Shown here: piece after piece, positions 5,982 through 51,790 of the stretch | Numbering within the stretch: position 1 is the stretch's first letter | Layout: every line of letters begins with the position of its first letter | From: Bacteroidales bacterium | GTDB lineage: Bacteria > Bacteroidota > Bacteroidia > Bacteroidales > WCHB1-69 | DNA length: 51,964 nucleotides | Direction of reading: 5' to 3' | NCBI GenBank assembly: GCA_017525245.1 | Contig: JAFXTE010000007.1 | Coordinates: 1 to 51,964, forward strand | Notes under the pieces: generated by a model | What the model saw: only the letters and a program-made list of their open reading frames with translations | What the model was told of the DNA's origin: nothing | The model's database searches: none | Position numbers and translations under genes: made by a program

Positions 5982-6016
5982 GGTTATGGGTTATAGGTTA
6001 TTGGTTATTGAAGCTG
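5982..6016. repeat. Heptad array GGTTATK x4 upstream of 4506-5978 gene
   Basis: Units GGTTATG, GGTTATA, GGTTATT, GGTTATT, then GAAGCTG. On the gene strand it reads AATAACC repeats ending three bases before the ATG. The same word occurs at four other loci in the window. Confidence 0.8.
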
Positions 6017-6048
6017 GTTAGTGGTTTAGGAGGTTAGGAAGGGGGAAT

Positions 6049-6076
6049 GTAGAGACGCAAAATTTTGCGTCTCTAC
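6049..6076. repeat. REP-like 28-base perfect palindrome
   Basis: Two 14-base arms (GTAGAGACGCAAAA and its exact complement) with no loop, nine bases after the DUF5606 stop. Palindromes of the GTAGAGACG...CGTCTCTAC type are scattered through genomes of several phyla. It could also stabilise or end the transcript; there is no T run. Confidence 0.7.
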
Positions 6077-6085
6077 GGTCGGAAA

Positions 6086-6523
6086 TTATTCGTTGTCAGA
6101 TTTCTCTGCGGGTTCCTCGGTCTTTTCCTCGGTTGCCGGTTCCTCTAAATCCACCAGATTGTGCTCCACGAGGATATTGTACCAAGAGAAGACCTTCTTC
6201 ATGTTGGAAACATAGACACGGTCGCGGTCGTATTCGGGAAGAATCTCAGCGAAATACGCCTTGATGGCGTTGCTATCTTTAGGAATCTCCAATTTCTTAC
6301 CGTCTTCTTTGCGATAAATGTTCTGGAAAACGGTCTGTAACGGTACTTCGTCCGTCTCAGTGAAAATGGCGATATTGTCCAATGCGGCTACACCATCGTT
6401 TGAGAATGCAGGGAAACGTTTGCCGTCATCGAGTCCTTCCACGATGAAGCTGTTAGGGGTTTTTGAAAGGAATTTGAACAGGCCTCCTTTGCCTGTGATC
6501 GATAAAATCTTGCTTAAATCCAT
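6086..6523 (-). CDS. DUF5606 domain protein
   Basis: A 145-residue soluble protein beginning MDLSKILSITGKGGLFKF, followed by SFIVEGLDDGKRFPAF and IAIFTETDEVPLQTVF. This is the conserved DUF5606 form of Bacteroidota, with unknown role. The last 20 residues are acidic and low in complexity (EEPATEEKTEEPAEKSDNE). No signal peptide is present, so it is cytoplasmic. A REP-like palindrome follows the gene and a block of short direct repeats and palindromes lies upstream. Confidence 0.75.
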   Translation of the reverse strand: MDLSKILSITGKGGLFKFLSKTPNSFIVEGLDDGKRFPAFSNDGVAALDNIAIFTETDEVPLQTVFQNIYRKEDGKKLEIPKDSNAIKAYFAEILPEYDRDRVYVSNMKKVFSWYNILVEHNLVDLEEPATEEKTEEPAEKSDNE

Positions 6524-6552
6524 CTTTTTTAAGTTTATAGGTTAATTACTTC

Positions 6553-6692
6553 GTGTTTTTTACTTCGTGTTAGTTAGCCTTCGGCTGTTGATTAGCCTTC
6601 GGCTGTTGATTACTTCGTGTTGGGCAATCCCCGTCAGGGGATGTATATCTGTAGAAAATGCCCATCGCGGTTTTAAAATCCCCGTAGGGGAT
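6553..6692. repeat. Intergenic block of short direct repeats and two palindromes
   Basis: A tandem 18-base repeat carries the hairpin GCCTTCGGC (two copies, about 6574-6610), and TTACTTCGTGTT recurs three times. Then come two related palindromes, ATCCCC-GTCA-GGGGAT (6627-6642) and ATCCCC-GTA-GGGGAT (6678-6692). The second pair looks like a REP family. No gene is seen here. Confidence 0.65.
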
Positions 6693-6706
6693 ACACATAT
6701 CGATTA

Positions 6707-7609: not shown

Positions 7610-7620
7610 ACCATAGGTTT

Positions 7621-7688
7621 GTTAGCAGTTAGTAGTTAGTAGTTAGCAGTTCGCTGCGAGAATCCAACTACTAACTGCTAACTACTAA

Positions 7689-7690
<2 letters not shown>
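7621..7690. repeat. Inverted pair of GTTAGYA heptad arrays
   Basis: Left array GTTAGCA, GTTAGTA, GTTAGTA, GTTAGCA (7621-7648); right array TACTAAC, TGCTAAC, TACTAAC (7669-7689) is its complement, so the two can form a long stem. The hutU stop codon (7689-7691) is part of the right array. It may act as the 3' hairpin of hutU. Confidence 0.8.
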
Positions 7691-9689
<1,999 letters not shown>

Positions 9690-9726
9690 ATCTTTGCTGT
9701 TTAATTATTCTTTTTGTACCAAACGG

Positions 9727-9734
9727 CAAAGATA
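9727..9734 (-). promoter_or_regulatory. -7 box TATCTTTG upstream of hutU
   Basis: Minus-strand TATCTTTG ends 37 bases before the hutU ATG, an intact promoter box in front of the interrupted gene. Confidence 0.65.
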
Positions 9735-9755
9735 CAATTTTTTTTAAGACTGGCA

Positions 9756-15256: not shown

Positions 15257-15272
15257 GTTTATGATGTAATAG

Positions 15273-15348
15273 GGTTCAAGGTTCAAAGTTCAAGGTTCAA
15301 GTTCAAAGTGTTAAAGCCAATAGCTAATAGCTAAAAGCCAAAGTCAGT
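15273..15348. repeat. Two heptad arrays, GGTTCAA and TAGCTAA/AAGCCAA
   Basis: GGTTCAA, GGTTCAA, AGTTCAA, GGTTCAA (15273-15300), a six-base partial unit, then AAGCCAA, TAGCTAA, TAGCTAA, AAGCCAA (15314-15341). The second array abuts the stop codon of the TPR gene (15344-15346). The interval between the TPR and S8 genes is almost wholly repeat. Confidence 0.8.
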
Positions 15349-16774: not shown

Positions 16775-16790
16775 TTCTATTAATGGTTAT

Positions 16791-17035
16791 GGGTTTATAG
16801 GTTATTGGTTATTGAAGGTCGTGAATAGTGAATAGAATTAATGTTAGAGTCATAGTTATAGTTTAAGTCTAAGTTTAAGTTTAAGTCTAAGTCTAAGTTT
16901 AAGTCTAAGTTTAAGTCTAAGTCTAAGTTTAAGTCTAAGTTTAAGTCTAAGTTTAAGTCTAAGTTTAAGTCTAAGTTTAAGTCTAAGTTTAAGTTAATAA
17001 GCTAATAGCCAAAAGCCAATAGCTAATAGCCAGCC
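16791..17035. repeat. Heptad, hexamer x22 and heptad arrays between trx gene and murD
   Basis: GGTTATG/GGTTATT units with one slipped unit lie at 16791-16818, next to the thioredoxin gene start. A pure hexamer array GTYTAA runs for 22 units at 16861-16992, with only C or T at the third base. Then GCTAATA, GCCAAAA, GCCAATA, GCTAATA, GCCAGCC at 17001-17035 run into the murD reading frame, so the last murD codons (Gly, Tyr, stop) are made of repeat. Confidence 0.85.
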
Positions 17036-18399: not shown

Positions 18400-18441
18400 A
18401 GGTGGTTTTGGTTTTGAAAGCGCGAATATACACTTTTTAAT

Positions 18442-18742
18442 GGTTATTGGTTATGGGTTATTGGTTATTGAAGCTTTTTGTTGGTTGTTGGTTGTTAGTT
18501 GATGGGTTTTAAAAGCATTGCTTAGGCCGGAGAGCATTTTGGCAATGTCAATGATTAAAGTTTGTAACGGTATACATCTTTTATAAGATTTCAATTTTTA
18601 CTGGATATTTCTTAATTCTCAAAAGGAAAACTCCTATTCTCCGTTTTTTGTCTTTTATGATTGATGTTTCTTATCCCTTTCACAATAAACTATAAACTAT
18701 AAACCAAAGCTTCAATAACCCATAACCAATAACCCATAACCA
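18442..18742. repeat. Gene-free interval bounded by inverted heptad arrays
   Basis: The 343-base gap between murD and the TPR membrane protein gene holds GGTTATT/GGTTATG units with GAAGCTT at 18442-18476, then GTTGGTT, GTTGGTT, GTTAGTT (18480-18500). At the other end are AAACTAT units (18687-18707) and AAGCTTC plus AATAACC/CATAACC units (18707-18741), the imperfect complement of the first array over about 38 bases. The 180 bases between are AT-rich without a gene. The right array abuts the stop codon at 18743-18745. Confidence 0.75.
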
Positions 18743-20791: not shown

Positions 20792-20850
20792 GGACTGAGG
20801 ATTGAGGACTGAGGACTGTGCATTTCTATAAGTCTCAAGTCTTAAGTCTC
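20792..20850. repeat. Heptad arrays GGACTGA and AAGTCTC
   Basis: GGACTGA, GGATTGA, GGACTGA, GGACTGT (20792-20819), a ten-base gap, then AAGTCTC, AAGTCTT, AAGTCTC (20830-20850). The second array ends one base from the kdsA stop codon (20852-20854). Confidence 0.8.
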
Positions 20851-20851
20851 A

Positions 20852-30200: not shown

Positions 30201-30276
30201 TCACTACACCCTCCAGTTCCTGAACGAAAAGGGTAGGAGAGTGGAAAGCCGGAAAATAGTCGTGAATAATAAATAA
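24211..30276 (+). CDS. Giant T9SS-secreted repeat protein, adhesin-like
   Basis: A 2021-residue exported protein with signal peptide ending near VFAQ (residue 28). Region A (about 90-690) has eleven repeats of about 50 residues: a Cys, then LPYxYxG, G-x-Y and GCDS followed by a beta strand. Region B (about 690-1790) has sixteen repeats of about 70-75 residues with the pattern ICxGxxxTLTATG, YxWSNG, SITV, GTYSVTxTNxxGCS, VNPLP, an Ig-like or PKD-like form. Then come one more A repeat, a linker, and a C-terminal type IX sorting domain (VTLYPNPVHQSLFVNLE...GHYTLQFLNEKGRR). Two Cys per B repeat suggest disulfides. Probably a surface adhesin; the ligand is unknown. Its stop codon opens a heptad array. 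Confidence 0.85.
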   Translation: MNNNLINRFLIMAVVLVSTACGGFVFAQNQPFQTDTVYHQEFGCDSYLLQANSTVYHSDTVVRIPHYIADQGLVYMDVLDVYQITIGHSYDYKDTVTARVCKNSLPYAYHGNFYTQPGSYWVNTPTLQGCDSLRTLVNLEVLEGQRDTTFVSMCNADPVVVNGITFPNPGTFNFPQGVDTDGCPVVQTYVITQYSVAIDTVDVRICQNEIPYSYMGYDLSVPGNYKIHYNSEGGCDAVKFVRFRVCPVYEFLDTIDVTVCGTELPYVYGNETFNASGTYQVVIPNRCGCDSVFVTLNLQVILPQIETVTQTVCAADFPYVYDSLHIFSEPGGYYINDDEDSACSQFTYLLLNAYQSIFDTVTICTSDSSYMYGDTLFTESTVYTYSDTNVYGCVDYHTIRVNLNNQMVYDTLSVEICASEMPYVFHGIEYWNSGEYDVVFQNQQGCDSAAVHIQVNTLTNPVVNRFVSITRNEIPFAYYDTVFTTSGNYMLQIPSATETECDTFLYLNLFVQPIYNQLIDTAVCANTVLNYLGEEITSAGIKEFIYHFADFDSIITLNVQHLPTYVDETVNVVVGEYDLPYHFADTSYYAAGYYERVLSTVSGCDSVVSLNLTVMPAIINNDTIFREVCSNDLPLQLFDSLLTEAGVYRFLTHTGESFIDSVFYVRLNVKESPTLIIADTSYMCTGSTVTLTAQSTGSIYRWSNGELQPSITVSLPGQYGVTVSNAFECSTVAAVQVVQVDLPEAEIVGDNQVCDGSSLLLEVEGGTDFLWSDGTMTSSITVSPTENTTYTVTVSNVYGCSTVKDIAVTVNPLPAIELLGNNSICEGANTTFYVSGASNYLWSNGSVAESITVGNAGTYSVTATDMNGCQSTASVVLMVHPLPVVKINGRNTYCHGGNTTITATGANTYEWSSGEVSQSIVVSYAGSYTVTGTDQYGCSATKSTIVSQSTVNASISGNLFFCHGQNTMLTVTGDAANTYHWFDGSSTSSININTAGQYSVTVTNADGCQNTLTAMVSEYNTTAPEISGNLTICENQTTTLRASGGSSYLWDNGSTQAMITVNVTGTYSVTSTNSYGCTATASATVLVNPIPAVDILSMSAVCKNDNVTLIAVSSAGTYNWNSGQNTAAITVSPAVSSTYTVLVTDENGCTNTASKMITVNPLPQLYVSGQTSICQGDTAHLDATGGVSYSWSNGQYDAGINVTAPGTYTVTATSADGCVAVSHVNVTVNPLPVASVTENVEVCRGQQAQLVADAPSGCTYTWSTGSHQGTTSVTEPGLYRVTVTNTNQCSRVYQSVVVVHELPVISIAGETNICQGQSATLTATGATAYSWNNGEVSSEILVSPVNNTTYSVTGTDVNGCSNSIQKVVMVEELPSVQVLGNRTLCQGQSTVLTATGGSSYQWGTGSNSQSIMVSPNLSTTYTVTAYSASGCSAVSSAAVTVNVLPSIIFSGNTSICQGQSTTIVATGGNTYIWNTGVTTNSITVTEPGVYKVNVTNSLNCMRSDSVTVVVWDNPTVNVVGSSLLCQGATATLTASGAETYLWSTGETGASVLVMPEQTTTYNVTGYDANGCSTTVGKVVNVEALPQVYISGVLAICHGDSTTLTSSDAYSYVWSTGSTANSITVSNQGAYTVTVSSENGCQAMASVTVEDRPMPDFDLSGNSFLCENTTEVLSVTGNNEYVWSTGETTSQITISTGGVYTVTATNSYNCTQSSSMNVIMLPAPELSIVGVSSLCQGETATLVASSDATQFQWSNGDTTQSIMVIPDNTTYSVTATNTNGCSSVAQHQVVSLPVYNIALTGSICEHQGFHNYGFDIPVMDTAGTYTFVRNLQTAAGCDSVVNLLLTVSPLPVLDTISGPQNITQYGNLYYTIDNPQYADSYEWMISNTHWTITEENYNHATLNVTTNGTGILTARGINNCGYTEITLNLYCNVGIEDYPANAVVTLYPNPVHQSLFVNLEKAPEISKVRLYNEAGRLVYQTNCNDTHLEIDCTRFANGHYTLQFLNEKGRRVESRKIVVNNK

Positions 30277-30413
30277 TTGATAATTGATAATGAAGTGGGG
30301 AGCTCGTAATGGATTCCTGATCGCTGATCACCATTCACTAATCACTAATCACTAATCACTAAACAACCACCAATCACCCAGCTTCAATAACCAATAACCC
30401 ATAACCAATAACC
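30274..30413. repeat. Three heptad arrays between the repeat protein and leuS
   Basis: TAATTGA-type units from the stop codon to about 30291; TCGCTGA, TCACCAT and four TCACTAA units in one register (30321-30362); AATAACC, AATAACC, CATAACC, AATAACC (30386-30413) ending nine bases before the leuS ATG. The last is the same word as at 5982, 16791, 18442 and 18714. Confidence 0.85.
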
Positions 30414-30422
30414 ATTACAAAT

Positions 30423-33260
30423 ATGGAATACAACTTCAGAGAAATCGAGAAAAAGTGGCAGGAAAAATGGAAAGAGTCAGGATTGTATAAAACGGAAATC
30501 GATCCTGACAGGCCGAAATTCTATGTGTTGGATATGTTTCCGTATCCGTCAGGTGCGGGGCTGCATGTGGGGCATCCGCTCGGCTATATCGCCTCTGACA
30601 TCTATGCGCGTTACAAACGGCAGAAGGGTTTCAACGTGCTGCACCCGATGGGCTACGACGCTTTCGGGCTGCCGGCGGAGCAATATGCCATCCAGACGGG
30701 ACAACATCCTGCGGTGACTACCGAGAAGAATGTCAACCGTTACCGCGAGCAGCTCGACAAAATCGGTTTCTCGTTCGATTGGGACCGCTCGTTCAAAACC
30801 TGCGACCCCGACTATTACAAATGGACGCAATGGACGTTCATTCAGCTGTTTAACTCCTACTACTGCTACCAAGCCAACCAGGCTCGACCAATATCTGAAT
30901 TGGAAGAGGCTTTCGCTGCCAATGGTACGCTAGGATTGGAGATTGCGCAGACCAAGCCGATGGAGTTTACTGCTGAGGAATGGAATGCTGCTTCCGAAAA
31001 GGAGAAGCAAGAAATTCTGATGAACTACCGTCTGGCATACTTGGCCGACACTTGGGTGAACTGGTGCCCGAAACTCGGCACGGTACTCGCCAACGATGAA
31101 GTAGTGAACGGACTTTCTGTGCGCGGCGGATTTCCTGTGGAACGTAAGTTGATGAAGCAGTGGATTTTGCGCGTGTCCGCGTATGCCGAACGCCTGCTAC
31201 AGGGTCTTGAAAAAGTTGATTGGACGGATTCCCTGAAGGAGATCCAGCGCAATTGGATCGGCCGCAGCGAAGGCGCCGCCGTTTGGTTCCCGCTCGCCAA
31301 AGAAGGTCAGCTGGATTGGAAGAAAATATATATGGGAGGTAATATTGAGGGTCTTGAGAGTGAAGCCGCTTTCGAGATTTTCACCACCCGCCCCGACACC
31401 ATTTTCGGTGTGACGTTCATGGTGCTGTGCCCTGAGCATGAGATGATAGACCAAATCACCACTCCCGAGCAGAAAGCCGAAGTGGAGGCATACGTCACAT
31501 GGGCGAAGAACCGTTCCGAGCGCGAGCGTCAGGCGGAGGTCAAGAAAGTGAGCGGTGTCTTCACCGGTGCTTTCGCCATCAACCCGATCACCGAAGAGCG
31601 CATCCCGATTTGGGTAAGCGACTACGTGCTGTCTGACTACGGTACCGGCGCCATCATGGCCGTGCCCGCACACGACAGCCGCGACTTCGCCTTTGCCCGT
31701 CATTTCAACCTTCCTATCCGTCAAGTGGTTGCACCCTCTGTGGATGAGATCAGCGACCCCGACACGTGGGAGGAGTCCATGGACAGCAAGACCGGTGTGA
31801 GTGTCAATTCCGGTTTCATCACCGGCATGACGGTCAAGGAGGCTGGCAAAGCGGTCATCGAGAAAATCAAGACCATGGGCATCGGTTATGGAACGGTGAA
31901 CTATCGTCTGCGCGACGCCATTTTCAGTCGTCAACGCTATTGGGGCGAGCCGTTCCCGATCTATTATAAGGATGGGATGCCTTATCCCGTTCCCGAGTCC
32001 GAACTGCCCGTTCTCCTTCCCGAAGTTGATCAGTTCCTGCCCACCGAAACAGGCGAGCCGCCGTTGGCACGCGCCAAGGACTGGACTTACAATGGCTATC
32101 CGCGCGAATACAGCACCATGCCTGGATTCGCTGGCTCCAGCGCGTACTATCTGCGCTATATGGATCCGAAGAACGACAAAGAGCTGGTTTCCAAAGAGGC
32201 CGATGAGTACTGGCAGAACGTGGATCTATACGTCGGTGGTGCGGAACACGGCACCGGCCACCTCATCTATGCCCGTTTCTGGAACAAATTCCTCTTCGAC
32301 CTTGGCGTCAGCTGCAAAGATGAACCCTTCCAGAAACTTATCAACCAGGGCATGATCCAGGGACGCTCCAATTTCGTCTATCGCGTGGTCGGCACCAACA
32401 AGTTTGTCTCCATCAATCTCAGAAAAGATTACGAAACCACACCTATCCATGTGGATGTCAACATTGTACATAATGATGTCCTTGACATAGAAGCGTTCAA
32501 AAACTGGATGCCTGACTTCAAGGATGCCGAATTTATTCTTGAAAACGGTCAATACATTTGCGGTTGGGAAGTCGAGAAGATGTCCAAGTCGAAATATAAC
32601 GTGCAGAATCCCGATGATTTGGTGGAGAAATATGGTGCGGACACGCTGCGCATGTACGAGATGTTCCTCGGGCCGGTGGAAATGGCCAAGCCGTGGGACA
32701 CCAACGGCATCGAGGGTGTCTCCCGATTCATTCGCAAGTTCTGGAAGCTCTATTTCGATGGCGAGGGCAACTTTAATGTCGTTGACGAAGAACCGACGAA
32801 GGCCGAGTGGAAGACGCTGCACAAGACCATCAAGAAGATTGAGGAGGACAACGAACGATTCTCCTTCAACACAGCGGTGAGCGCGTTCATGATTTGCACC
32901 AACGAGCTGAACGATGCCAAGTGCAACAAACGTGCTGTCCTCGAGCCGCTCTGCATCCTGATGTCGGCCTACGCACCGCACATCACCGAAGAGTTGTGGT
33001 CACTGCTCGGTCATCAGGAATCCATCTTGAAAGCTGCCTATCCGGTTTATGACGAGCATTATATGGTGGAAGACGAATATCTCTATCCCGTCTCGTTCAA
33101 CGGCAAGATGCGTCTGAAGATGTCGTTCCCGGCCAGCTATACGCCTAAGGACATCGAGCCGCTGATTCTTGAGAATCCGGATGTGCAGAAATGGTTGGCG
33201 GGTGCTACGCCCAAGAAAATTATCATCGTCCCGAAGAAGATTGTGAATGTTGTGTTTTAG
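30423..33260 (+). CDS. leuS: Leucyl-tRNA synthetase
   Basis: A 945-residue class I synthetase that charges tRNA-Leu with leucine. The HIGH-type motif is HVGH (48-51) in [15 protein letters not shown]. An editing (CP1) domain includes [15 protein letters not shown] and [17 protein letters not shown], whose Thr-rich and Asp residues hydrolyse mischarged tRNA. Also seen are [20 protein letters not shown], the late [24 protein letters not shown] block and KMSKSKYN (about 719-726). Length is a little above the bacterial norm, as in other Bacteroidota. Gene ends in TTTTAG, which is the first unit of a heptad array. No promoter box was recognised directly upstream. Confidence 0.97.
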
Positions 33261-36174: not shown

Positions 36175-36532
36175 ATGAAACGAAATGTTGTTTTGGAAAA
36201 AAGTGCTGCATTCTCAATTCGAATAGTCAATCTTTACAAATATCTCACTTGTGAAAAGCATGAGTATGTAATGGCAGAACAGATTAAGAGATCAGGCACC
36301 AGCATAGGGGCTAATATTAGCGAAAGCCAAAACGCGCAAAGCAGAGCCGATTTTATTCATAAAATGAACATCGCTAAAAGAAGCTGATGAAACGGTGTAT
36401 TGGCTGAATTTGTTGCATAAAACTCATTATCTGACTGACATCGAATTTGAATCAATGAAAAACGATGCTGAAGAACTTGTCAAGCTCTTAAAAGCAATCG
36501 TAAAGACTTCAAAATCACGTACTCCCCATTAA
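36175..36532 (+). pseudogene. Four-helix-bundle (S23-like) protein gene with frameshift
   Basis: The first frame (36175-36387) gives a 70-residue start of the S23/four-helix-bundle family: LYKYLTCEKHEYVMAEQIKRS, GANISESQNAQSRADFIHKMNIA. It then ends at TGA, but the +1 frame (36380-36532) continues with EADETVYWLNLLHKTHYLTDIEFESM...ELVKLLKAI, the rest of the same family. Family members usually read IALKEADET here; a two-base loss inside GCTTTAAAAGAAGCT would produce the sequence seen. The family is of unknown function, often next to or inside rRNA genes. Likely broken, unless the base run was misread. The 3' end lies in an AATTATC array. Confidence 0.8.
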
Positions 36533-36561
36533 TTATCCATTATCAATTATCAATTATCAAT
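36531..36561. repeat. AATTATC heptads x4
   Basis: AATTATC, CATTATC, AATTATC, AATTATC in register from 36531, overlapping the stop of the frameshifted gene, then AATTA. Confidence 0.75.
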
Positions 36562-36638
36562 TAATCAAATGGTTACATCGAAAAGTTGCGTTTTTGAAAA
36601 AAAAATAATAAACGGAACGGGGAATAAAGAAAAAAGTG

Positions 36639-41028: not shown

Positions 41029-41634
41029 ATGGCAAGATATACAGGACCCAAAACGAAAATCGCAAGAAAATTCAAGGAACCCATCTACGGTCCCGACAAA
41101 TATTTCGAAAGAAAGAACTATGCTCCGGGTCAGCATGGTCAGTCTCGCAGACGCACGAAACTCTCTGAGTACGGTATGCAGTTGCAGGAGAAACAGAAAG
41201 CGAAATACACCTACGGCATTCTGGAGCGCCAGTTCCGTAAACTCTTCCACATGGCATCCCGCAAGAAAGGTGTCACGGGTCAGAACTTGATGCAACTCAT
41301 CGAGTCCCGTCTCGACAATGTGGTGTTCCGCTTGGGCATTGCCCCCACCCGTAACGCTGCCCGCCAGCTGGTCACTCACCGTCATATCACCGTTAACGGC
41401 CAAATCAGCAACATTCCTTCAATGCTGTTGAAACCGGGTGACACGGTGGAGGTTCGCGAGCGTTCCAAGACCCTCGAGGTGATTGAGAACTCTCTCAGTG
41501 GCAAGGCGATGAACTTCGGATGGCTCGAATGGGACGGCAACCTCAAGGTTGGCAAATTCATGCAATATCCTCAGCGCGAGGAAATTCCGGAAACCATCAA
41601 CGAGCAGGCAATCGTCGAGTTGTACTCTAAATAG
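41029..41634 (+). CDS. rpsD: Small subunit ribosomal protein S4
   Basis: A 201-residue primary 16S-binding protein with the N-terminal [17 protein letters not shown] and an S4 domain [30 protein letters not shown]. In many bacteria S4 represses this operon. Its stop codon starts a TAGTGAA heptad array. The Cys motif of zinc-binding S4 proteins is absent. Confidence 0.97.
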
Positions 41635-41734
41635 TGATTAGTGAATAGTGAACAGTGAATAGAGGTTGGTTATCTCATGACAAACAATCATAAATCATAG
41701 GTCACAAGTCATAAGTCACAAGTCGCAAATCACA
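41632..41734. repeat. Heptads between rpsD and rpoA
   Basis: TAGTGAT, TAGTGAA, TAGTGAA, CAGTGAA, TAGAGGT (41632-41666), the first unit beginning with the rpsD stop, then AATCATA, AATCATA, GGTCACA, AGTCATA, AGTCACA, AGTCGCA, AATCACA (41686-41734), ending 15 bases before rpoA. This is inside an essential operon. Confidence 0.85.
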
Positions 41735-41749
41735 AAAAATAAACGAAAA

Positions 41750-42745: not shown

Positions 42746-42749
42746 AACA

Positions 42750-43299: not shown

Positions 43300-43325
43300 G
43301 TCAGTCAGTTTTTAAAGGTATAAAG

Positions 43326-43362: not shown

Positions 43363-43365
43363 TGC

Positions 43366-43407
43366 CAATAGCTAAAAGCTAAAAACCAATAGCCAATAGC
43401 CGATTAG
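43366..43407. repeat. CAATAGC heptads at M16 gene end
   Basis: CAATAGC, TAAAAGC, TAAAAAC (one base phase gap), CAATAGC, CAATAGC, CGATTAG, with the M16 stop at 43404-43406. The CAATAGC word also occurs at 33297-33324 and, shifted, at 15314 and 17001. Confidence 0.75.
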
Positions 43408-46313
43408 TATCCGAAAATCTCTTCCAAACTCAGTTTCGTCACCTTTCCGTATTTCTCCAGACCCTTCAAATCCACCTCGTTTTCGTTACCGAGTACAACC
43501 ACCACTCTCTTTTGTCCCTTGATGTAGGTCTTGTTGAAGTTCGTGACATCATTCAAGGTCATTTTCTGGATGGTGTTGAAATTGGTTCTGTCCATCGGAG
43601 CCTTCAGCCCCATTTCCTCGCAGGTGAGGAAGTAGTTGATGATGCTCATCTTGCGGGTGCGGTTGGTACGGTATTGGGAGATCAGGGAAGTCTTGGCGAG
43701 GTCGAAGTTCAGCTCAGACACAGGCATGTTGTCCAGCAGATCGGTGAAGGCCTCCATGGCGTCGATCAGCTTGTCGTTCTGCGTGCCAATGTGGGTCATA
43801 TTGTAGTTGTATTTGCCTTTCTCGCTCGGTTCCACATAGTAGGCGGCGGCAGAGTAGGCCAAAGAGCGTTTCTCGCGGATTTCCTGGAACACGATGGAGT
43901 TCATGCTCCCGCCGAAGTACTCGTTGTACATCTCGATTTGCGGACTCATAGACCAGTTGGCAGGTACGGAGGTGCTCAGCTGGCGGCACAAGGACTGTTT
44001 AGCATCGTAGTGGGCGAAATAGACCTTGTTGTCTTTCGTGGCGAGACGGTCGTAGTCAGCACCCATCTTGACGGGTTTCTTGGCCGGATGCACGCTGTGC
44101 TTGTCAGTGAGGACCTTCTGCAAGTCATTAAGACTCAGGTCACCGTAATAGAGGATGCGCTGCGGCTGAGAGGTCATCGTCTTGATCTGGTTGATGACAT
44201 CCTGGGCCTTGATCTTCTGGACCTCTTCGTTGCTTACGAAATACTTGCGGATGTTGTCCTTGCCGAAGGAAGCGTAACGCAGCATATTTTGGAAGATGGT
44301 TTGCTGGCGCGATTTCGCATCCACGCGGGATTTCAAGACATCGCTGATGGAATTTTTAACGGATTCCTCGGAGATTTTCGGGTGGTTGAGGATGTCCTCC
44401 ACAATGGCCATGGCCTTCTCCATGTTCTCGCTGAGGCCGTTGATATAAATGTTGGCGTATTTGTCGCCGAAACCGATGGAATAGGAGCAGGCGAGGTCGT
44501 ACATCTCGCGGTTGATCTGGCTCAGTGTGCGGTTCTCGCTCTCTAACTGGTCGAGGAAGTTGTTGGTGATGCCGGCTTTCTTGTCATAGAATCTACCATA
44601 GTTGTAACGATAGACAAGCGTGAAACGGCCGTTGTCGGTATTCTTCACGTAGAGGATCTCGTTGCCGTTGGCCTTGCCCTTCTGCATGTCTTTGTTGAAA
44701 TCCACGAAAACGGGTTCGATGGGGTTCACCTTCATGCTTTTGACCTCTTTCAAGAAGTTGCTTTCCACGTCGCGGTTCATGACCACAGGGGTGATTTCGG
44801 GCTTGTCGACTTTCTGCACGTTGCGTTGCTCGCCTTGACGTTTATAGATGATTACATAGTTGTTTTTCTTGAAGATACGGTTCGCGAAGTCGATGACATC
44901 TTCCTTCGTGACATAGCTCATGTTCTCGGTTTCATTGACCACATCCTGCCAGCTCCGGTGGGCGAGGTAAGCCATGGCCATAGCCATGGCGCGGTTGGTA
45001 TTGCTCTCAAGACTCGTCATGTCACTCAGCTTGCGGTTGTTGATGGCGGCGGTAAGAAGTTTTTCGTCCCAGTTGCCGGATTTCAGAACCTCGATTTGTT
45101 GCAGCAACAGGTCTTTCAGCTGCTCAAGGGTCTGTCCTTCTTTGGGTCTGCCGTAGAGACGGAAGTATGCATAGTCGTTGAGGTCGCTCACGCCGGAATA
45201 GGCGGTCATGGCCAGCTGTTTTTGGTTGATGTTCTCATCGATGATACCGCAAGAACCGTTCATCAGCACGGCGTCAGCCATCTCAGCGAGGAGCACGTCG
45301 CGAGAGCCTGTGCCGGACTCAATGCGGTAGCCGATCTGCACGTTCTCGGGCTCCAGACCATAGACTTCCACGGTTTTCACCTCACGGATAGGTTTCTCAT
45401 GAACGTAAGTGAAATCGGGGATGTATTTCGGCTGAATCTTTCCGAAATATTTGTCAATCAATTTGATGACCTGATCGGGATCAAAGTCGCCCGCCATGGC
45501 AATACAGTAATTGTTCGGAACATAGTAGGTGTAGAAGTGCTTGTTGATGTTGGTCAGGGACGGATTCTTCAGGTGCTCAATGGTACCGATGGTGGTCTGT
45601 GTGCCGTAAGGATGGTTCGGGAACAGGGCTTCGTTCAGCTTTTCGTAAGCCGTGCGGCTGTCGTTGGCCATGTTCATGTTCTTCTCCTCATAGACGGCCT
45701 CCAGCTCGGTGTGGAACAAGCGGAAGACGGGATTGGCGAAACGCTCGCCCTCAATCTTCAGCCAACGTTCAACTTCGTTGCTCGGGATGTCCTCCTGATA
45801 GACGGTCATATCGTTGGAAGTGAAAGCGTTAGTGCCCTGCGCACCGATCATGGACATCATCTTGTCGTACTCGTTGGGGATGGCGTACTTGGAAGCCTCG
45901 TACGACACGGAGTCGATCTGATGGTAGATGGCCTTGCGCTGGGCGGGGTCGGTGGTGTGGTTATAGACCTCGTACAACGCTTCGATCTTCTTGAGCTGCT
46001 CCTGCTCCTTGGCCCAGTCGAGGGTGCCGAAGTGGTTGGTGCCCTTGAACATCAAGTGTTCCAAGTAGTGGGAGAGGCCCGTGGATTCCGACGGGTCGTT
46101 CTTGCTGCCCACGCGCACCGCGATGTAGGTCTGGATGCGCGGAACGTCCTTGTTCACGGACATAAATACCTGCAGACCGTTGTCCAACGTGTAGTGGATG
46201 ACGTTCATCGGGTCATTCTGATAGGTCTCCTTGTGGTAATTCTGCGCGAAAGAGCTGAAGGTCAGGAGACAGCAGGCCGCCAGCAGCAGAGTTGCGATAA
46301 AGTTACGTTTCAT
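43404..46313 (-). CDS. M16 family zinc peptidase (insulinase/pitrilysin-like)
   Basis: A 969-residue exported two-half M16 protein. Signal peptide (MKRNFIATLLLAACCLLTFSSFAQ). The first half has the inverted zinc motif HYLEH (82-86) in STGLSHYLEHLMFKGTNHFG with the third ligand near VYEEKNMNMANDSRTAYEK (about 208-226). The second half (from about 500) has the fold without the motif. Degrades peptides in the periplasm. The gene starts 15 bases after the M6-like protease stop, so they form an operon. Confidence 0.93.
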   Translation of the reverse strand: MKRNFIATLLLAACCLLTFSSFAQNYHKETYQNDPMNVIHYTLDNGLQVFMSVNKDVPRIQTYIAVRVGSKNDPSESTGLSHYLEHLMFKGTNHFGTLDWAKEQEQLKKIEALYEVYNHTTDPAQRKAIYHQIDSVSYEASKYAIPNEYDKMMSMIGAQGTNAFTSNDMTVYQEDIPSNEVERWLKIEGERFANPVFRLFHTELEAVYEEKNMNMANDSRTAYEKLNEALFPNHPYGTQTTIGTIEHLKNPSLTNINKHFYTYYVPNNYCIAMAGDFDPDQVIKLIDKYFGKIQPKYIPDFTYVHEKPIREVKTVEVYGLEPENVQIGYRIESGTGSRDVLLAEMADAVLMNGSCGIIDENINQKQLAMTAYSGVSDLNDYAYFRLYGRPKEGQTLEQLKDLLLQQIEVLKSGNWDEKLLTAAINNRKLSDMTSLESNTNRAMAMAMAYLAHRSWQDVVNETENMSYVTKEDVIDFANRIFKKNNYVIIYKRQGEQRNVQKVDKPEITPVVMNRDVESNFLKEVKSMKVNPIEPVFVDFNKDMQKGKANGNEILYVKNTDNGRFTLVYRYNYGRFYDKKAGITNNFLDQLESENRTLSQINREMYDLACSYSIGFGDKYANIYINGLSENMEKAMAIVEDILNHPKISEESVKNSISDVLKSRVDAKSRQQTIFQNMLRYASFGKDNIRKYFVSNEEVQKIKAQDVINQIKTMTSQPQRILYYGDLSLNDLQKVLTDKHSVHPAKKPVKMGADYDRLATKDNKVYFAHYDAKQSLCRQLSTSVPANWSMSPQIEMYNEYFGGSMNSIVFQEIREKRSLAYSAAAYYVEPSEKGKYNYNMTHIGTQNDKLIDAMEAFTDLLDNMPVSELNFDLAKTSLISQYRTNRTRKMSIINYFLTCEEMGLKAPMDRTNFNTIQKMTLNDVTNFNKTYIKGQKRVVVVLGNENEVDLKGLEKYGKVTKLSLEEIFGY

Positions 46314-46328
46314 AATGTTTGATTTGTA

Positions 46329-47927: not shown

Positions 47928-47952
47928 TTAACCTTGATTTTGATTTAACTTG

Positions 47953-47960
47953 CAAAAATA
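47953..47960 (-). promoter_or_regulatory. -7 box TATTTTTG of the M6-M16 operon
   Basis: Minus-strand TATTTTTG fits TAnnTTTG and lies 25 bases before the M6-like ATG at 47927. Confidence 0.65.
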
Positions 47961-48120
47961 TATTTTTTGTGTTTTGGAGGCCGATATGTTGATAATTATT
48001 GAAATTTTGTCGCCCGCCGCCCCGTTCCCGTCCAATTTTTATACACCCCTGTCGCAATAATGGACACCCGTCCGACGTTGCTTTTCGCGTAAATGGCTGA
48101 TTTTTAAGTGTGTGTCGGTT

Positions 48121-48140
48121 TTGGCACGGTTTTGGGAATT
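48121..48140 (+). promoter_or_regulatory. Candidate sigma-54-type promoter
   Basis: TTGGCACGGTTTTGGGAATT has a perfect -24 half (TTGGCACG) but its -12 half reads TGGGA where TTGCW is expected, two mismatches. No TAnnTTTG box was seen ahead of the ABC gene. Confidence 0.35.
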
Positions 48141-48150
48141 AAACTCCTAC

Positions 48151-48248
48151 TTTGAGCAGCCCCGGAGGGGCAAGAGCTCGGTAGGGGTACGGATGGGGGA
48201 GATGATGCGATGATGCGATGATACGATGAAACGATGATGCGATGATAT
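48151..48248. repeat. REP-like element and GATGATGC octamer array
   Basis: TTGAGCAGCCCCGGAGGGGC and CAAGAGCTCGGTAG (48156-48184) form a copy of the element at 21788, 49091 and 51860. Then six octamers (48201-48248): GATGATGC, GATGATGC, GATGATAC, GATGAAAC, GATGATGC, GATGATAT. Between 47961 and 48150 nothing else was recognised apart from the candidate promoter. Confidence 0.75.
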
Positions 48249-48268
48249 TAGAACGAAACAACAAAACA

Positions 48269-48937
48269 ATGATACGATTAGAGAACATCAGCAAAAGCTT
48301 CCGTTCCGAGACAGTGGAGACGAAAGCGCTACAGCGAGTAAACCTGGAGGTCCGGAAGGGCGAGTTCATAGCCGTGATGGGCCCTTCCGGTTGCGGCAAG
48401 ACCACTTTGCTCAACATCCTCGGGCTTCTCAACACCCCCGACTCGGGCCGCTATTTCCTTGACGGCCGCGACGTGAGCGGACTGAAAGAGCGCGACCGGC
48501 TGAAGCTGCGGCGCGGGGTCATCGGCTTCGTGTTCCAGAGCTTCAACCTCATCGATGACATGAACGTCTTCGAGAACGTGGAGCTGCCGTTGCGCTACCT
48601 CGGTCTAAGCAAGTCGAAGCGGCGGGCGAAGGTCAACGAGGTGCTGGAACGCATGAGCATCATCCACCGGGCGAGCCACTATCCGCAGCAACTCTCCGGC
48701 GGACAGCAGCAACGCGTCGCCGTGGCCCGCGCGGTCGTCTCCAACCCGCAGCTCATCCTCTGCGACGAACCCACCGGCAACCTCGACAGCCACAACGGTC
48801 TCGACGTCATGCACCTGCTCTGCGACCTCAACGCTGCCGGCACCACCATCGTCATGGTCACCCACAGCGCCCACGACGCCGGCTTCGCGCACAGGATCGT
48901 TCACCTGCTCGACGGCACCATCAATTATGAATGCTGA
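48269..48937 (+). CDS. ABC transporter ATPase, MacB/LolD type
   Basis: A 222-residue ATPase that powers an FtsX-type permease. Walker A GPSGCGKTT (about 39-47), the Q-loop in FVFQSFNLI, signature LSGGQQQRVAVARA, Walker B LILCDEPTGNLD and the His switch in TIVMVTHS. ATG at 48269 was taken over the in-frame 48242 because it starts with the family form MIRLENISKSF. The last four codons before the stop (Asn-Tyr-Glu-Cys) lie at or in a heptad array. It pairs with the permease downstream. Confidence 0.93.
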   Translation: MIRLENISKSFRSETVETKALQRVNLEVRKGEFIAVMGPSGCGKTTLLNILGLLNTPDSGRYFLDGRDVSGLKERDRLKLRRGVIGFVFQSFNLIDDMNVFENVELPLRYLGLSKSKRRAKVNEVLERMSIIHRASHYPQQLSGGQQQRVAVARAVVSNPQLILCDEPTGNLDSHNGLDVMHLLCDLNAAGTTIVMVTHSAHDAGFAHRIVHLLDGTINYEC

Positions 48938-49019
48938 ATGATGAATGTTGAATGTTGAATGCTGAATGCTGAATGATGAATGCTGAATGCTGAATGTAGA
49001 ATGTAGAATGAAGAATGAT
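48929..49019. repeat. GAATGNN heptad array x13
   Basis: Thirteen units in perfect register: GAATG plus CT, AT, TT, TT, CT, CT, AT, CT, CT, TA, TA, AA, AT. The ABC ATPase stop codon (48935-48937) lies within the first two units. Confidence 0.9.
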
Positions 49020-49022
49020 GGT

Positions 49023-49195
49023 ACGAAAGAGCCCCAATTCCCCCCTTTAGGGGTGATGCCCGCAGGGCAGGGGGGTATCAAAACTGCTTCCTTGAGCAGC
49101 CCCGGAGGGGCAAGACGCGCGAAGCGCTAATAACCCCACACAAGCGAAGCGCAGTGTGGGGCTGGAAGAAGCAGAAGGTCCCGAACTGCGGAGAC
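49023..49195. repeat. 173-base direct repeat, copy 1
   Basis: Identical to 51792-51964 except one base (T or G near position 32). It is made of hairpins: nested CCCCCC/GGGGGG and GCCC/GGGC stems, GCCCC-GGA-GGGGC, GCGCGAAGCGC and CCCCACAC/GTGTGGGG. It precedes the permease. The remaining 65 bases to the ATG hold no clear promoter box. Confidence 0.95.
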
Positions 49196-49260
49196 AGCGA
49201 TGACGACGAAGCGCAGCCTCAGTGTATGGGCCTGACAAGAACGAAAAAACCAAATCAGAT

Positions 49261-51765
49261 ATGAAAACCCCAAAAATCCTCAACATCCTCGGCCTCGCCG
49301 TGGCCATCGCCGCCTTCATGGTGGTGGCGATGGTAAGATACTATGACCTCCGGTACGACAAGTCCTATCCCGGCGCCGACCGCATCTACGAAGTGAAGTC
49401 CTGGAGAAACGACTACACTGGAGACAAATTTCCAACCATACAGAACAAGGCAGGGATTCGCCGATTAGCGGATGTGACGCCGGAAAACGTGGCCAAACTC
49501 CCTTCCGATCTCCCTTTCGAGGAGTTGGAGGACGTCTGCTTGGCTCGCGGTTATGGTTACGGCCTCTACCATCTTTACGCACCCAGCCTTCCAGAGGTGG
49601 ACACGCTCGTGCCGATGCAGGTGGCCACGCCGTCGGTGTTCCGATTTTTCGGGATCAAACTCAAGGCGGGAAGTTTGGAGACCTTTGGCGATGACAACAA
49701 CATTGTGATCACCAATGGTTTGGCAAAGCATCTTTTCCCGAAAGGAGACGCAGTGGGGCAAAAATTGGTCATTGCCACGGACCCCGATGACGAGTTGGGC
49801 GACTATGCAGAATTGAACTCGATAGAAAACGGTGACACGGTTACGGTCATCGCCGTCTGCAAGGATTTACCGCAGAACACTTCGATGGCATATTATGGAA
49901 TCATTCGTTGTTTTAATCCGAAGCAAATCAAGGGCCATATCTATTATAAGCTCAAAGAGGGTTGTGAAAAATATCCTTTTGAGAAGCGGATGTTTGAAAT
50001 ATATCAGAGTGATTATCAAGCATATATGGCAACCCAAGACACCACAGGCGATTCGCAACTGTGCTATACGGAACGTGCGGAGAAATACGAAAACGCGCCT
50101 AAGGAATGCGATTCGATGTCACTGGAATTGTTAAGCGAGCAGCATTTCTCCACGAACAATTTCTGGAATGTGGATGAGGAACATTCCACCAACGTCTCCA
50201 AGGTGTTAAGCGTGTTCGGCATCGTGCTATTGCTGCTCGCTTTCCTGAATTTTACCAACTATGCGGTGGCTACTGTGCCGATGTTCCTGCGCAAGACGAA
50301 CATCCGCAAGATCGAGGGTTGCTCCAACGCGCAGCTTCGCTGGGAGATGTTCGGGCGTTTCCTGCTCTCCGCTGTTATCGCGTTCCTCATCGCGCTGGTC
50401 ATCGTGGAGGTGTGCGCCCGCACGAAAGTGATCCCGTTCGTGGAAATCAGTCTGAATTTGGCGGACAACCTGCCTGTGGTGTGGATTTCCGCCGCCGTCA
50501 CCCTTCTGGTTGCCGTGGTTGCCTCGCTCTATCCAGTCTTCTACGCCACCGCCGCCACTAACATCGAATCGGCGTTGAAGAGCCAGCTATCCACCCCGCA
50601 GAAGTACGGCAAGTGGCGCAAAGTGTTGCTTCGTATGCAGACCACTCCAGCTTCCGTGGTGCAGTTCTTCGCCTCGTTTGCCATCATCCTCTTCATGACG
50701 TTGGTTTTTGTGCAGAATCATAGCATGAAGACCGCCGATGTGGGCTTCAAAACGGACAATGTGTATGTATCCGTCGGACGATGCTTCAGGACGAATTTTT
50801 CCAATTCAGAAGGGGTTGTCAACATAGACCCATATATGTTGCAGAATATGTTTGACTCTGTTTCTGGCGTTCATGCGGTCGCTTTTGCTATGGACCCTGT
50901 TATGGGTCATGGGGAAGTGGTTTCCTATCAGGGGATTCTCATAGGAGATGAACAAATACATCTCAATGCCAGAACTGTGTCGCTCGATTTCTTCGACTTT
51001 TTCGGTATAGAGGTGGTTCGTGGAAGAATGATGGCGCGCCCAATCGGCTCAATTCATACGGAATCGATGGTCAACGAGGCGGCGCTTCAAGAGAACGAAG
51101 CTCTTTATTCCGATTCTCTTCGAAAATCCCCTCGTGTGGTCGGTGTGGTGCGTGACTACCACAACCTTTCCTTGACCAATGAGATTCTTCCGTGTATTTA
51201 CAGTCCCTACGCCCATGGACTGGCAAGGGGATTACGGACGGTTTATTTCTATGTGAAGCTGGGCGAGGGACAGGACATTCAGCGAGTGGAAGAGGAAATT
51301 TTGAAGAAATTGAAATCCGCTGGCGTCGATGATTTCAAGTTAGGGCATTTCCAGTCATTGAAGCAGGAAATCGACAAGGAGTACGAGAAAGAGGACGACT
51401 TCGCCAAGCTGATGGCGCTCTTCGGGGCGGCCACGTTGTTCGTCACGCTTACCGGACTGATCGGCATGGTGATGTTGGATTGCACGTACCGTCGCCGCGA
51501 GCTGACTTTGCGCCGCGTGTATGGTGCCTCCACCGGCGACCAGCTCTGGAAGATGCTCCGCAACCAGCTCATTATCTGCACCGTCTGTTTCGCCGCCGCC
51601 GCGCCCCTTGCTGTCGTCTTCCACAAGTGGCAGCAGCACTTCGCCTTCAAGAGCAATACCCCCGCCTGGGTCTTCATCGTCGTCTTTCTCACCATCACCC
51701 TTCTCGCCCTCGCCATCACCGTCTGGCAGACCCTGCAGACGTTGCGGGAGGAACCAGATATATAG
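49261..51765 (+). CDS. FtsX/MacB-like ABC permease
   Basis: An 834-residue membrane protein. N-terminal TM (about residues 7-25), a periplasmic domain, then three helices around 315-345, 365-385 and 405-430, a second periplasmic domain and three C-terminal helices (ATLFVTLTGLIGMVMLD, LIICTVCFAAAAPLAVVF, TPAWVFIVVFLTITLLALAITVW). FRRVYGASTGDQLWKML-type cytoplasmic loop (LTLRRVYGAS) contacts the ATPase. ATG at 49261 gives the correct N-terminal helix; an earlier in-frame start at 49222 lies in the repeat-rich leader. The double MacB-like layout is common in this phylum; substrate unknown. Confidence 0.88.
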   Translation: MKTPKILNILGLAVAIAAFMVVAMVRYYDLRYDKSYPGADRIYEVKSWRNDYTGDKFPTIQNKAGIRRLADVTPENVAKLPSDLPFEELEDVCLARGYGYGLYHLYAPSLPEVDTLVPMQVATPSVFRFFGIKLKAGSLETFGDDNNIVITNGLAKHLFPKGDAVGQKLVIATDPDDELGDYAELNSIENGDTVTVIAVCKDLPQNTSMAYYGIIRCFNPKQIKGHIYYKLKEGCEKYPFEKRMFEIYQSDYQAYMATQDTTGDSQLCYTERAEKYENAPKECDSMSLELLSEQHFSTNNFWNVDEEHSTNVSKVLSVFGIVLLLLAFLNFTNYAVATVPMFLRKTNIRKIEGCSNAQLRWEMFGRFLLSAVIAFLIALVIVEVCARTKVIPFVEISLNLADNLPVVWISAAVTLLVAVVASLYPVFYATAATNIESALKSQLSTPQKYGKWRKVLLRMQTTPASVVQFFASFAIILFMTLVFVQNHSMKTADVGFKTDNVYVSVGRCFRTNFSNSEGVVNIDPYMLQNMFDSVSGVHAVAFAMDPVMGHGEVVSYQGILIGDEQIHLNARTVSLDFFDFFGIEVVRGRMMARPIGSIHTESMVNEAALQENEALYSDSLRKSPRVVGVVRDYHNLSLTNEILPCIYSPYAHGLARGLRTVYFYVKLGEGQDIQRVEEEILKKLKSAGVDDFKLGHFQSLKQEIDKEYEKEDDFAKLMALFGAATLFVTLTGLIGMVMLDCTYRRRELTLRRVYGASTGDQLWKMLRNQLIICTVCFAAAAPLAVVFHKWQQHFAFKSNTPAWVFIVVFLTITLLALAITVWQTLQTLREEPDI

Positions 51766-51790
51766 TTAGTAATTAGCAGTTTGTAGTTGT
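51763..51790. repeat. TAGTTAG heptads after the permease
   Basis: TAGTTAG, TAATTAG, CAGTTTG, TAGTTGT, beginning with the stop codon and ending at the second 173-base repeat. Confidence 0.7.

What the first reader, a model, noticed from the sequence alone, without database searches (positions are those of the whole stretch)
5982..51790. Degenerate heptanucleotide tandem arrays fill most short intergenic spacers
About two dozen gene-free stretches are tandem repeats with a 7-base period and point variation, often C/T or A/G at one place of the unit. Units include GGTTATK, GTTAGYA, GGTTCAA, TAGCTAA, GGACTGA, AAGTCTC, TCACTAA, AATAACC, TTTTAGC, CAATAGC, AATTGAT, AATTATC, TAGTGAA, RRTCAYA and GAATGNN. 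Rare cases use 6 or 8 bases. They often include the stop codon of the preceding gene or end close to a start codon. Similar heptads (STRR) are known from heterocystous cyanobacteria; I know of no description for this group. Copy number could vary by slippage and alter gene spacing.
Basis: partly seen in the sequence, partly recalled or inferred. Interest (0 to 1): 0.8.

Follow-up and report, generated by a model that had tools for sequence, protein, structure and literature searches.

The report
Mirror-image seven-base repeats between genes
Some gut bacteria carry fast-changing stretches of repeated seven-letter DNA words in over a quarter of the longer gaps between their genes, often as mirror-image arms pointing away from the genes, which makes a scattered curiosity of bacterial genomes testable.

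Summary
Spacers have a strong 7-base period (z 13.6 in the window, 29.4 in an 852-kb genome sample) that shuffles lack and coding DNA does not show. "Most short spacers" fits the window (10 of 18) but not the sample (91 of 307).

By its relatives the host is an uncultured rumen Bacteroidales. Arrays reach about 200/Mb in one subclade of its genus, 38-100 in four other members, and 22 in other Bacteroidales loci.

- Polarity: the C-poor strand runs from the gene edge into the spacer, often from the stop codon.
- Arms: the two halves of a spacer tend to be reverse complements, sometimes replaced together between relatives; the signal is partial.
- Lexicon: 57 units in 184 arrays, about 159 expected by chance.

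Polarity, inverted pairs and a four-unit preference are published for G-rich heptads of Xanthomonas and Nostoc (PMC4692102). Here only 3 of 323 arrays could form a G-quadruplex, so quadruplexes are not the general cause. I read the arrays as DNA-level products of slippage and copying between spacers; the cause of polarity is open.

The parts
5981..6010 (-). AATAACC-type array upstream of the start of the minus-strand ORF 4506-5978; inner end GAAGC
   Evidence: TRF period 7; listed as an n=4 AATAACC element 3 nt from the start
7621..7651 (.). left arm of an inverted pair, unit GTTAGCA/GTTAGTA
   Evidence: TRF; RNA fold of the spacer -37.1 kcal/mol pairing both arms
7666..7691 (.). right arm of the pair, unit AACTACT/AACTGCT, reverse complement of the left arm and running into the stop codon of the minus-strand ORF 7689-8729
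   Evidence: TRF; inverted score 40 against at most 17 for swapped partners
15273..15306 (.). GGTTCAA array near the called start of the minus-strand ORF 13466-15286
   Evidence: TRF
15315..15338 (.). AGCTAAT-type array next to the stop of the minus-strand ORF 15344-16192
   Evidence: TRF
16780..17032 (.). composite spacer: AATAACC-type array, GTGAATA array, 12-base AGTCTAAGTTTA array, AGCCAAT array reaching the stop of the minus-strand ORF 17023-18399
   Evidence: TRF rows 16780, 16821, 16860, 17000
18437..18505 (.). TTATTGG and TTGTTGG arrays (G-rich arm of a 343-bp spacer)
   Evidence: TRF; spacer 18397-18745 inverted score 73
18685..18742 (.). ATAAACT and AATAACC/CATAACC arrays (C-rich arm), running up to the stop codon of the minus-strand ORF 18743-20779
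   Evidence: TRF
20792..20851 (.). GGACTGA and AAGTCTC arrays
   Evidence: TRF; orthologous spacer seen in two relatives, with more units in L012
21729..21768 (.). TCAAGTC/AAGTCTC array between divergent genes
   Evidence: TRF
30273..30291 (+). TTGATAA array at the stop codon of ORF 24211-30276
   Evidence: TRF
30327..30423 (+). TCACTAA then AATAACC arrays up to the start of the leucyl-tRNA synthetase gene
   Evidence: TRF; other units in relatives L011, L013, L014, L015, L019
33255..33327 (+). TTTTAGC arm then AATAGCC arm filling the spacer after leucyl-tRNA synthetase; the stop codon lies inside the first unit
   Evidence: TRF; two more TTTTAGC-type units in L009, and no spacer at all in L018
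36077..36100 (+). AATTGAT array
   Evidence: TRF
36531..36568 (+). AATTATC array
   Evidence: TRF
41630..41662 (+). left arm of the spacer before ORF 41750-42745 (the rpsD-rpoA spacer by operon order, recalled), unit TAGTGAA, includes the stop codon of ORF 41029-41634
   Evidence: TRF; TTTTAGC-type repeats stand here in L012 (left side only) and L018 (both sides)
41686..41736 (+). right arm of the same spacer, units TCATAAG/TCACAAG
   Evidence: TRF
43364..43401 (-). GCCAATA array at the stop of the minus-strand ORF 43404-46313
   Evidence: TRF
48923..49020 (+). TGAATGC/TGAATGT array of about 14 units that starts inside the end of ORF 48242-48937
   Evidence: TRF
51763..51788 (+). TAGTTAG/TAGCAGT array at the stop of ORF 49222-51765
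   Evidence: TRF
6049..6076 (.). 28-bp palindrome GTAGAGACG-core-CGTCTCTAC, a second dispersed repeat class in the same kind of spacer
   Evidence: 125 copies in this genome

Best explanation
The arrays are best read as DNA-level repeats, not genes, RNAs or phase switches. In one subclade of a rumen Bacteroidales genus a limited lexicon of seven-base words has spread through intergenic spacers. Shown: arrays change length in steps of seven; the word at a given spacer often differs between close relatives and the new word is usually one of the same lexicon; in some spacers both ends change together as reverse complements; the C-poor strand runs from the gene edge into the spacer. Inferred: arrays grow and shrink by 7-base slippage; new ones arise by copying short heptad tracts from other spacers, or from the other end of the same spacer by fold-back or template switching. 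Genes tolerate them at their edges, where at the stop side the array often overlaps the stop codon. Inferred and weakest: the polarity is imposed when an array is born, by the direction of synthesis away from the gene edge, rather than by later selection.
For: Period 7 in spacers, not in coding DNA or shuffles. Polarity: of arrays nearer the left gene 57 are G>C and 19 C>G, nearer the right gene 17 and 64; repeated in G020 (23:8 and 16:28), in ten subclade loci (14:7 and 2:17) and in G013 (9:2 and 3:6). In a pool of 323 arrays it is strong within 10 nt of stops (119:27) and 1-80 nt from starts (86:17), and absent further from stops (10:21). It holds between convergent genes of this genome (20:4) and for arrays with a promoter-like TAnnTTTG match before the start (11:2; some matches lie over 100 nt away and may be chance, and some arrays are orthologues). 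Arms: own-spacer inverted similarity beats swapped partners (0 of 5000 permutations for 17 spacers of 12 subclade loci, 58 of 5000 for 24 spacers of G000); exchange of one hairpin for another at orthologous sites. Arrays whose consensus unit is not at the orthologous site are at least as polar (30:7) as the others (20:8) (some of the 'different' units are one-base variants). Lexicon: 57 units in 184 arrays against 146-171 in 200 random draws; 75 of 91 G020 arrays use it, 8% expected; 33 of 40 units at sites where G000 and G020 share no unit recur among arrays of the same genome sample (TRF rows not merged). No excess of G.T over A.C mismatches between arms (48 against 69 in 33 hairpins), so no sign of sense-RNA pairing.
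Against: No generator is identified: Y1 transposases occur in 23 of 24 genus genomes, MutS in 20 of 20, PolA 5' nuclease in 17 of 20, RVT_1 in 6 of 20 and not in the array-rich G020, Ku in 0 of 20. Pairing of arms is partial: 22 of 79 period-7-rich codirectional spacers beat all ten shuffles; own partners exceed 95% of swaps in only 1 of 24 and 2 of 17 spacers and rank first in 3 and 3; and direct similarity of own halves is raised as well (21.6 against 15.6, 25.3 against 14.5), so part of the signal is simply that one spacer uses one kind of word. Divergent spacers show weak polarity (16:6 here, 8:6 in relatives), and convergent polarity is weaker in relatives (8:4). Arrays overlapping a called start run the other way (9:17). 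Four genus members outside the subclade still have some period-7 signal (z 1.7-8.2). Genes are mechanical ORF calls, and arrays of one family or of orthologous sites are not independent, so p-values are descriptive. Selection at birth cannot be told from a directional mechanism.
Confidence: 0.5

Rival explanations
1. Punctuation selection: heptads arise in any orientation by slippage, and selection keeps C-poor (stop-rich) strands at stop codons and G-poor (start-free, unstructured) strands before start codons; the inverted look is a by-product.
For: Stop-side arrays overlap the stop codon (55 of 94 and 49 of 81) and have more sense stops than antisense (density 0.116 against 0.094); start-side arrays have fewer sense ATG/GTG/TTG (0.037 against 0.077). 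24 of 27 C-rich exceptions within 10 nt of a stop still carry a sense stop, although those that overlap the stop codon do so by definition. TAG is the stop in 23 of 63 and 23 of 62 array genes, against 118 of 588 and 112 of 446 others. Stop-side polarity vanishes beyond 10 nt.
Against: Polarity persists when a promoter-like match lies between array and start (11:2) and is no weaker in arrays whose unit is absent from the orthologous site (30:7 against 20:8). It does not by itself predict that the two arms of one spacer match each other better than swapped arms.
Confidence: 0.25
2. Functional RNA hairpins: the arms pair in the transcript and act as terminators, processing sites or mRNA stabilisers between genes of an operon.
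For: Some spacers fold strongly (window 7610-7688, -37.1 kcal/mol); a hairpin is exchanged for another at the same site (the spacer after the ORF ending at C97 32604 of G000).
Against: G.T 48 against A.C 69 mismatches in 33 heptad hairpins of codirectional spacers. L018 has no spacer at all where relatives have arms. Some array spacers hardly fold (L100 17643-17736, -0.6 kcal/mol). No Rfam match in the window.
Confidence: 0.1
3. Binding sites for a translational or transcriptional regulator, as proposed for TAACTGA in marine Beggiatoaceae.
For: 37 of 63 start-side arrays of this genome sit 1-30 nt from the start, and the AATAACC element has four units in 37 of 56 cases with conserved ends.
Against: 57 different units in 184 arrays; 17 of 28 array-bearing orthologous spacers share no identical consensus unit between G000 and G020; stop sides are used as much as start sides (68 of 650 genes against 62 of 655).
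Confidence: 0.08
4. Mobile non-autonomous elements moved by a transposase, such as REP elements moved by RAYT.
For: The AATAACC family is a dispersed element with conserved ends TAATGG and GAAGC.
Against: The other unit families show no comparable pair of conserved outer ends. 0 of 14 Y1 transposase genes examined have a GTAGAGACG palindrome or a heptad array (17 of 21 matches at lag 7) within 260 nt, while several have GC-rich REP-like repeats.
Confidence: 0.07

Closest known systems
G-rich heptads GGGAATC (Xanthomonas) and GGGGA(C/T)T (Nostoc PCC 7120), Rehm et al. 2015, PMC4692102 (abstract, sections 10, 13, 14, 15, 16 and found passages read)
   Same: Seven-base unit, mostly intergenic, G-rich strand close to the 5' neighbouring ORF whatever its direction, overlap with stop codons, preference for four units, inverted pairs (70 cases in Xcc, 75 in Xac), length differences between relatives.
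   Different: Here dozens of mostly AT-rich units; 3 of 323 arrays have four GGG or CCC tracts; about 216 arrays/Mb, against 186 repeats reported for the whole Xcc genome (different search criteria); [quoted passage not shown]
TAACTGA direct repeats of marine Beggiatoaceae, some Cyanobacteria and five Bacteroidetes, MacGregor 2015, PMC4679880 (abstract, sections 3, 7, 8, 10, 24 read)
   Same: Mostly intergenic heptads; forward orientation before starts (12 of 14 sets in Flexibacter litoralis, with one reverse set just after a stop); indels mostly in 7-nt steps between two Cyanothece strains.
   Different: One dominant unit there; related heptamers rarely repeated in BOGUAY. TAACTGA is not among the 59 units. 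One inverted repeat reported in BOGUAY.
STRR heptads of heterocystous cyanobacteria (recalled, not read)
   Same: Degenerate intergenic heptad tandems.
   Different: In 350 kb of Trichormus variabilis plasmid A I found 12 intergenic arrays without clear polarity (7:5), and 0 of 13 arrays with a unit of this lexicon.
Survey 'Satellites in the prokaryote world' 2019, PMC6749651 (passages only)
   Same: Notes abundant families derived from heptamer repeats in bacteria.
   Different: [quoted passage not shown] no gene-edge polarity in the passages seen.
REP elements with RAYT/Y1 transposases (recalled; start of a REPIN abstract seen in the listing)
   Same: Dispersed intergenic hairpins.
   Different: Here several Y1 genes are flanked by GC-rich repeats, and none of 14 by heptads.

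Membership tests
Intergenic heptanucleotide tandem repeats (the general kind: STRR, TAACTGA, GGGAATC) | Tandem units of seven bases concentrated outside genes | tested here: met
Intergenic heptanucleotide tandem repeats (the general kind: STRR, TAACTGA, GGGAATC) | Length differences in steps of seven between relatives | tested here: met
   15 of 47 gaps of 5 nt or more are multiples of 7 in array spacers, 5 of 43 elsewhere; examples
GGGAATC-type heptads of Xanthomonas/Nostoc | G-rich strand points from the gene edge into the spacer, overlapping stop codons | tested here: met
GGGAATC-type heptads of Xanthomonas/Nostoc | Preference for four units | tested here: inconclusive
   AATAACC element 37 of 56 with four; all arrays peak at 4 (107 of 323) but the finder's score threshold removes short arrays
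GGGAATC-type heptads of Xanthomonas/Nostoc | Units able to form G-quadruplexes | tested here: not met
   3 of 323 arrays have four or more GGG or CCC tracts
TAACTGA repeats | Unit TAACTGA | tested here: not met
   Not among the 59 canonical units of 193 arrays
RAYT/REP elements | Same repeat flanks the Y1 transposase gene | tested here: not met
   0 of 14 Y1 genes examined flanked by heptads
Described RNA families | Match to an Rfam covariance model at gathering score | tested here: not met
   0 matches in the window
Phase-variable contingency repeats | Copy number switches expression of a surface gene | not testable with these tools
   No population or expression data; arrays also lie beside conserved genes such as leucyl-tRNA synthetase

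The most novel reading that the evidence does not exclude
The spacers are scars of a directional DNA synthesis process: free 3' ends at the two edges of a spacer are each extended away from the gene by repeated copying of one seven-base word, then joined, leaving matched inverted C-poor/G-poor arms. The same process, with other words, would have written the G-rich heptads of Xanthomonas and Nostoc.
Probability: 0.1. Interest if true: 0.85.

Novelty: new variant of a known kind. Interest (0 to 1): 0.55.

Why it matters
Why heptads are a favoured tandem repeat in many bacterial genomes, and why they sit at gene edges, is open. This lineage gives a natural experiment: many different units, dense arrays, and close relatives that differ site by site. 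It separates polarity and inverted pairing from quadruplex formation, which the authors of the Xanthomonas and Nostoc study had linked to the four-unit preference. It also warns that C-termini, stop codons and spacers of these genomes can be rewritten by repeats, which affects annotation and strain typing.

Tried and rejected
Chance: rejected. Assembly artefact: unlikely. G-quadruplex function: rejected as a general cause. RNA hairpin function: not supported. RAYT mobility of heptads: not supported (14 of the Y1 matches listed were examined). Generator genes (MutS, PolA 5' nuclease, RVT_1, Ku): none tracks array load; these calls were given 20 of the 24 genus genomes (G006, G007, G009 and G019 left out), and the three without a PolA-nuclease match are G014 and G017 (array-poor) and G021 (no AATAACC hit, otherwise not sampled). 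A telomerase-like extension by an RVT_1 enzyme was dropped because G020 has none; a Ku-based end-joining version of the novel case has no support. The reverse-pattern control of the genome search is not a control for AATAACC because the unit is mirror-symmetric. The first pairing test gave a modest signal and direct similarity of halves was as high as inverted; the swap test was clearer, but own partners rarely rank first. The cyanobacterial comparison was underpowered (12 arrays). Left out of polarity counts: arrays inside ORFs or at stretch ends (39 of 208), arrays with equal G and C, and arrays equally far from both genes. Start-side arrays overlapping a called start run the other way (9:17); I suspect wrong start calls but did not test it. 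Four genus genomes (G006, G007, G009, G019) gave no true leucyl-tRNA synthetase match and are not placed in or out of the subclade; three of them are AATAACC-rich.

Full report
The window is contig C51 of a 3.68-Mb, 111-contig genome. Its leucyl-tRNA synthetase is 91-97% identical to that of Bacteroidales assemblies mostly from rumen and other gut samples, such as RUG083. Of 23 genus relatives, 8 have 91-97% identity to this protein (the 'subclade'), 11 have 78-83%, and 4 gave no true match. G020 of that list is, by contig position, the RUG083 record held as L009 (inference).

The observation. TRF finds 30 period-7 rows among 56 in the window. Spacers show a period of 7 with harmonics that coding DNA and dinucleotide shuffles lack, in the window and in 852 kb of the genome. 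Arrays/Mb: 216 here, 228 in G020 (400 kb), 200 in G013 (80 kb), 207 in ten other subclade loci; 38-100 in four genus members outside the subclade (80 kb each, 3 to 8 arrays, period-7 z 1.7 to 8.2); 22 in two loci at 83%; and 22 in 55 loci of other Bacteroidales and Bacteroidetes (23 arrays, z 5.9). One word, AATAACC (three units, up to three mismatches), has 251 hits in this genome and 0 to 226 in 23 genus members; 28 of the 40 genomes searched, this one included, have any hit. 'Most short spacers' is true of the window only.

Anatomy. In the genome sample, 68 of 650 genes have an array just after the stop and 62 of 655 just before the start, against none in shuffles. Read inward from the nearer gene, arrays are C-poor. 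On the plus strand, arrays nearer the left gene are G-rich (57:19) and those nearer the right gene C-rich (17:64); spacer sequence outside arrays has skews of only +0.028 and -0.027 in its left and right halves, against +0.28 and -0.30 inside arrays. The rule repeats in G020, G013 and subclade loci; in other Bacteroidales it is 8:3 and 4:6, too few to judge. It is confined to 10 nt from stops and extends to about 80 nt from starts. At stops the array usually includes the stop codon (55 of 94 and 49 of 81; starts 7 of 63 and 12 of 72), and TAG is over-represented. Arrays with a promoter-like match between them and the start keep the rule (11:2), though some of these matches may be chance.

Inverted arms. 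In several spacers the two ends are reverse complements, for example window 7610-7688. In spacers with heptad signal in both halves, a spacer's own halves match better inverted than swapped halves do: mean 34.1 against 20.3 in 17 spacers of 12 subclade loci (0 of 5000 permutations) and 27.8 against 21.0 in 24 spacers of this genome (58 of 5000). But own partners rank first in only 3 cases of each set, exceed 95% of swaps in 2 and 1, and direct similarity is raised too. So the pairing is a tendency, not a rule. A mismatch test gives no RNA-level signal.

Turnover. The spacer between ORFs 41029-41634 and 41750-42745 has TAGTGA-type arms in this genome, L009 and L016, a related TGATCAC array in L010, and TTTTAGC-type repeats in L012 and L018. 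After leucyl-tRNA synthetase, relatives have TTTTAGC, TTAATGG, TTATTGG, TGATCAG, GGCAACA or GGGAATA words, a palindrome only (L019), or no spacer (L018); the two relatives at 83% show no arrays there. Against G020, 96 orthologous spacers gave 47 without arrays, 21 too short, 11 with a shared unit, 9 with arrays but no shared consensus unit, 5 with arrays in G020 only and 3 here only; 185 kb of aligned sequence average 88% identity. Some units counted as different are one-base variants. Gaps of seven and its multiples are enriched.

Lexicon. 184 arrays use 57 units, where random spacer 7-mers would give about 159. 75 of 91 arrays of G020 and 50 of 67 of other subclade members use the same set, against 6 of 21 outside the subclade, 7 of 23 in other Bacteroidales and 0 of 13 in a cyanobacterial plasmid; 8% is expected by chance. 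Units at sites where the two genomes disagree are mostly known elsewhere in the same genome (33 of 40). This points to copying between spacers rather than fresh slippage from local sequence. Of the families tested only AATAACC has conserved outer ends and a favoured copy number: TAATGG at the gene side, GAAGC inside, four units in 37 of 56.

How it most likely works. Shown: directionality, inverted pairing in part of the spacers, replacement, heptad-step length change, limited lexicon. Inferred: slippage plus copying between spacers, with polarity set at or soon after birth, because arrays whose unit is absent from the orthologous site are as polar as the others (30:7 against 20:8). Selection on stop and start punctuation is the main rival and probably contributes. 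No enzyme was found: Y1 transposases, MutS, PolA 5' nuclease, RVT_1 and Ku do not track array load.

Comparison with the known. Rehm et al. 2015 (PMC4692102) report for G-rich heptads the same strand rule, stop-codon overlap, inverted pairs and four-unit preference, and link the four units to quadruplexes while leaving function open. MacGregor 2015 (PMC4679880) reports TAACTGA sets mostly in forward orientation before starts. The present case shares the architecture but not the unit, the single-word character or the quadruplex potential. It is a new variant of a known kind. That such arrays are undescribed in this lineage rests on the rows listed by seven searches of an open-access library; most subscription papers are not held there.

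Limits. Genes are mechanical ORF calls; starts are approximate. Pooled counts include orthologous arrays and shared families, so p-values are descriptive. No expression, strain or long-read data were available.

Noticed in passing
window 6049-6076; all 24 genus genomes searched: A 28-bp palindrome GTAGAGACG-10 nt-CGTCTCTAC, 125 copies here and 3 to 244 in 23 relatives. In the stretches held, cores vary but stay mostly self-complementary (36 of 57 ten-base cores perfect, 20 with one broken pair). One copy also in 350 kb of Trichormus variabilis plasmid A. None beside the 14 Y1 genes examined.
   Followed up: partly
window 48158-48184, 49098-49111, 51867-51880; L177, L183, L187: GC-rich hairpins (AGCCCCGGAGGGGC, at the first place followed by GCTCGGTAG) resemble repeats flanking several Y1 transposase genes of the genus, so they may be the REP elements of RAYT-type transposases.
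   Followed up: partly
window about 49023-49195 and 51792-51964: A near-identical stretch of about 172 bp, with the GC-rich hairpin and a CCCCACAC...GTGTGGGG hairpin, occurs twice in the window (read).
   Followed up: no
L103 5438-5460, L095 9666-9690, L018 upstream of leucyl-tRNA synthetase: Arrays run into coding sequence, so the last few residues and the stop codon of some proteins appear to be written by the repeat.
   Followed up: partly
window 16860-16994: An 11-copy 12-base array (AGTCTAAGTTTA) sits between heptad arrays, a rare non-heptad tract.
   Followed up: no
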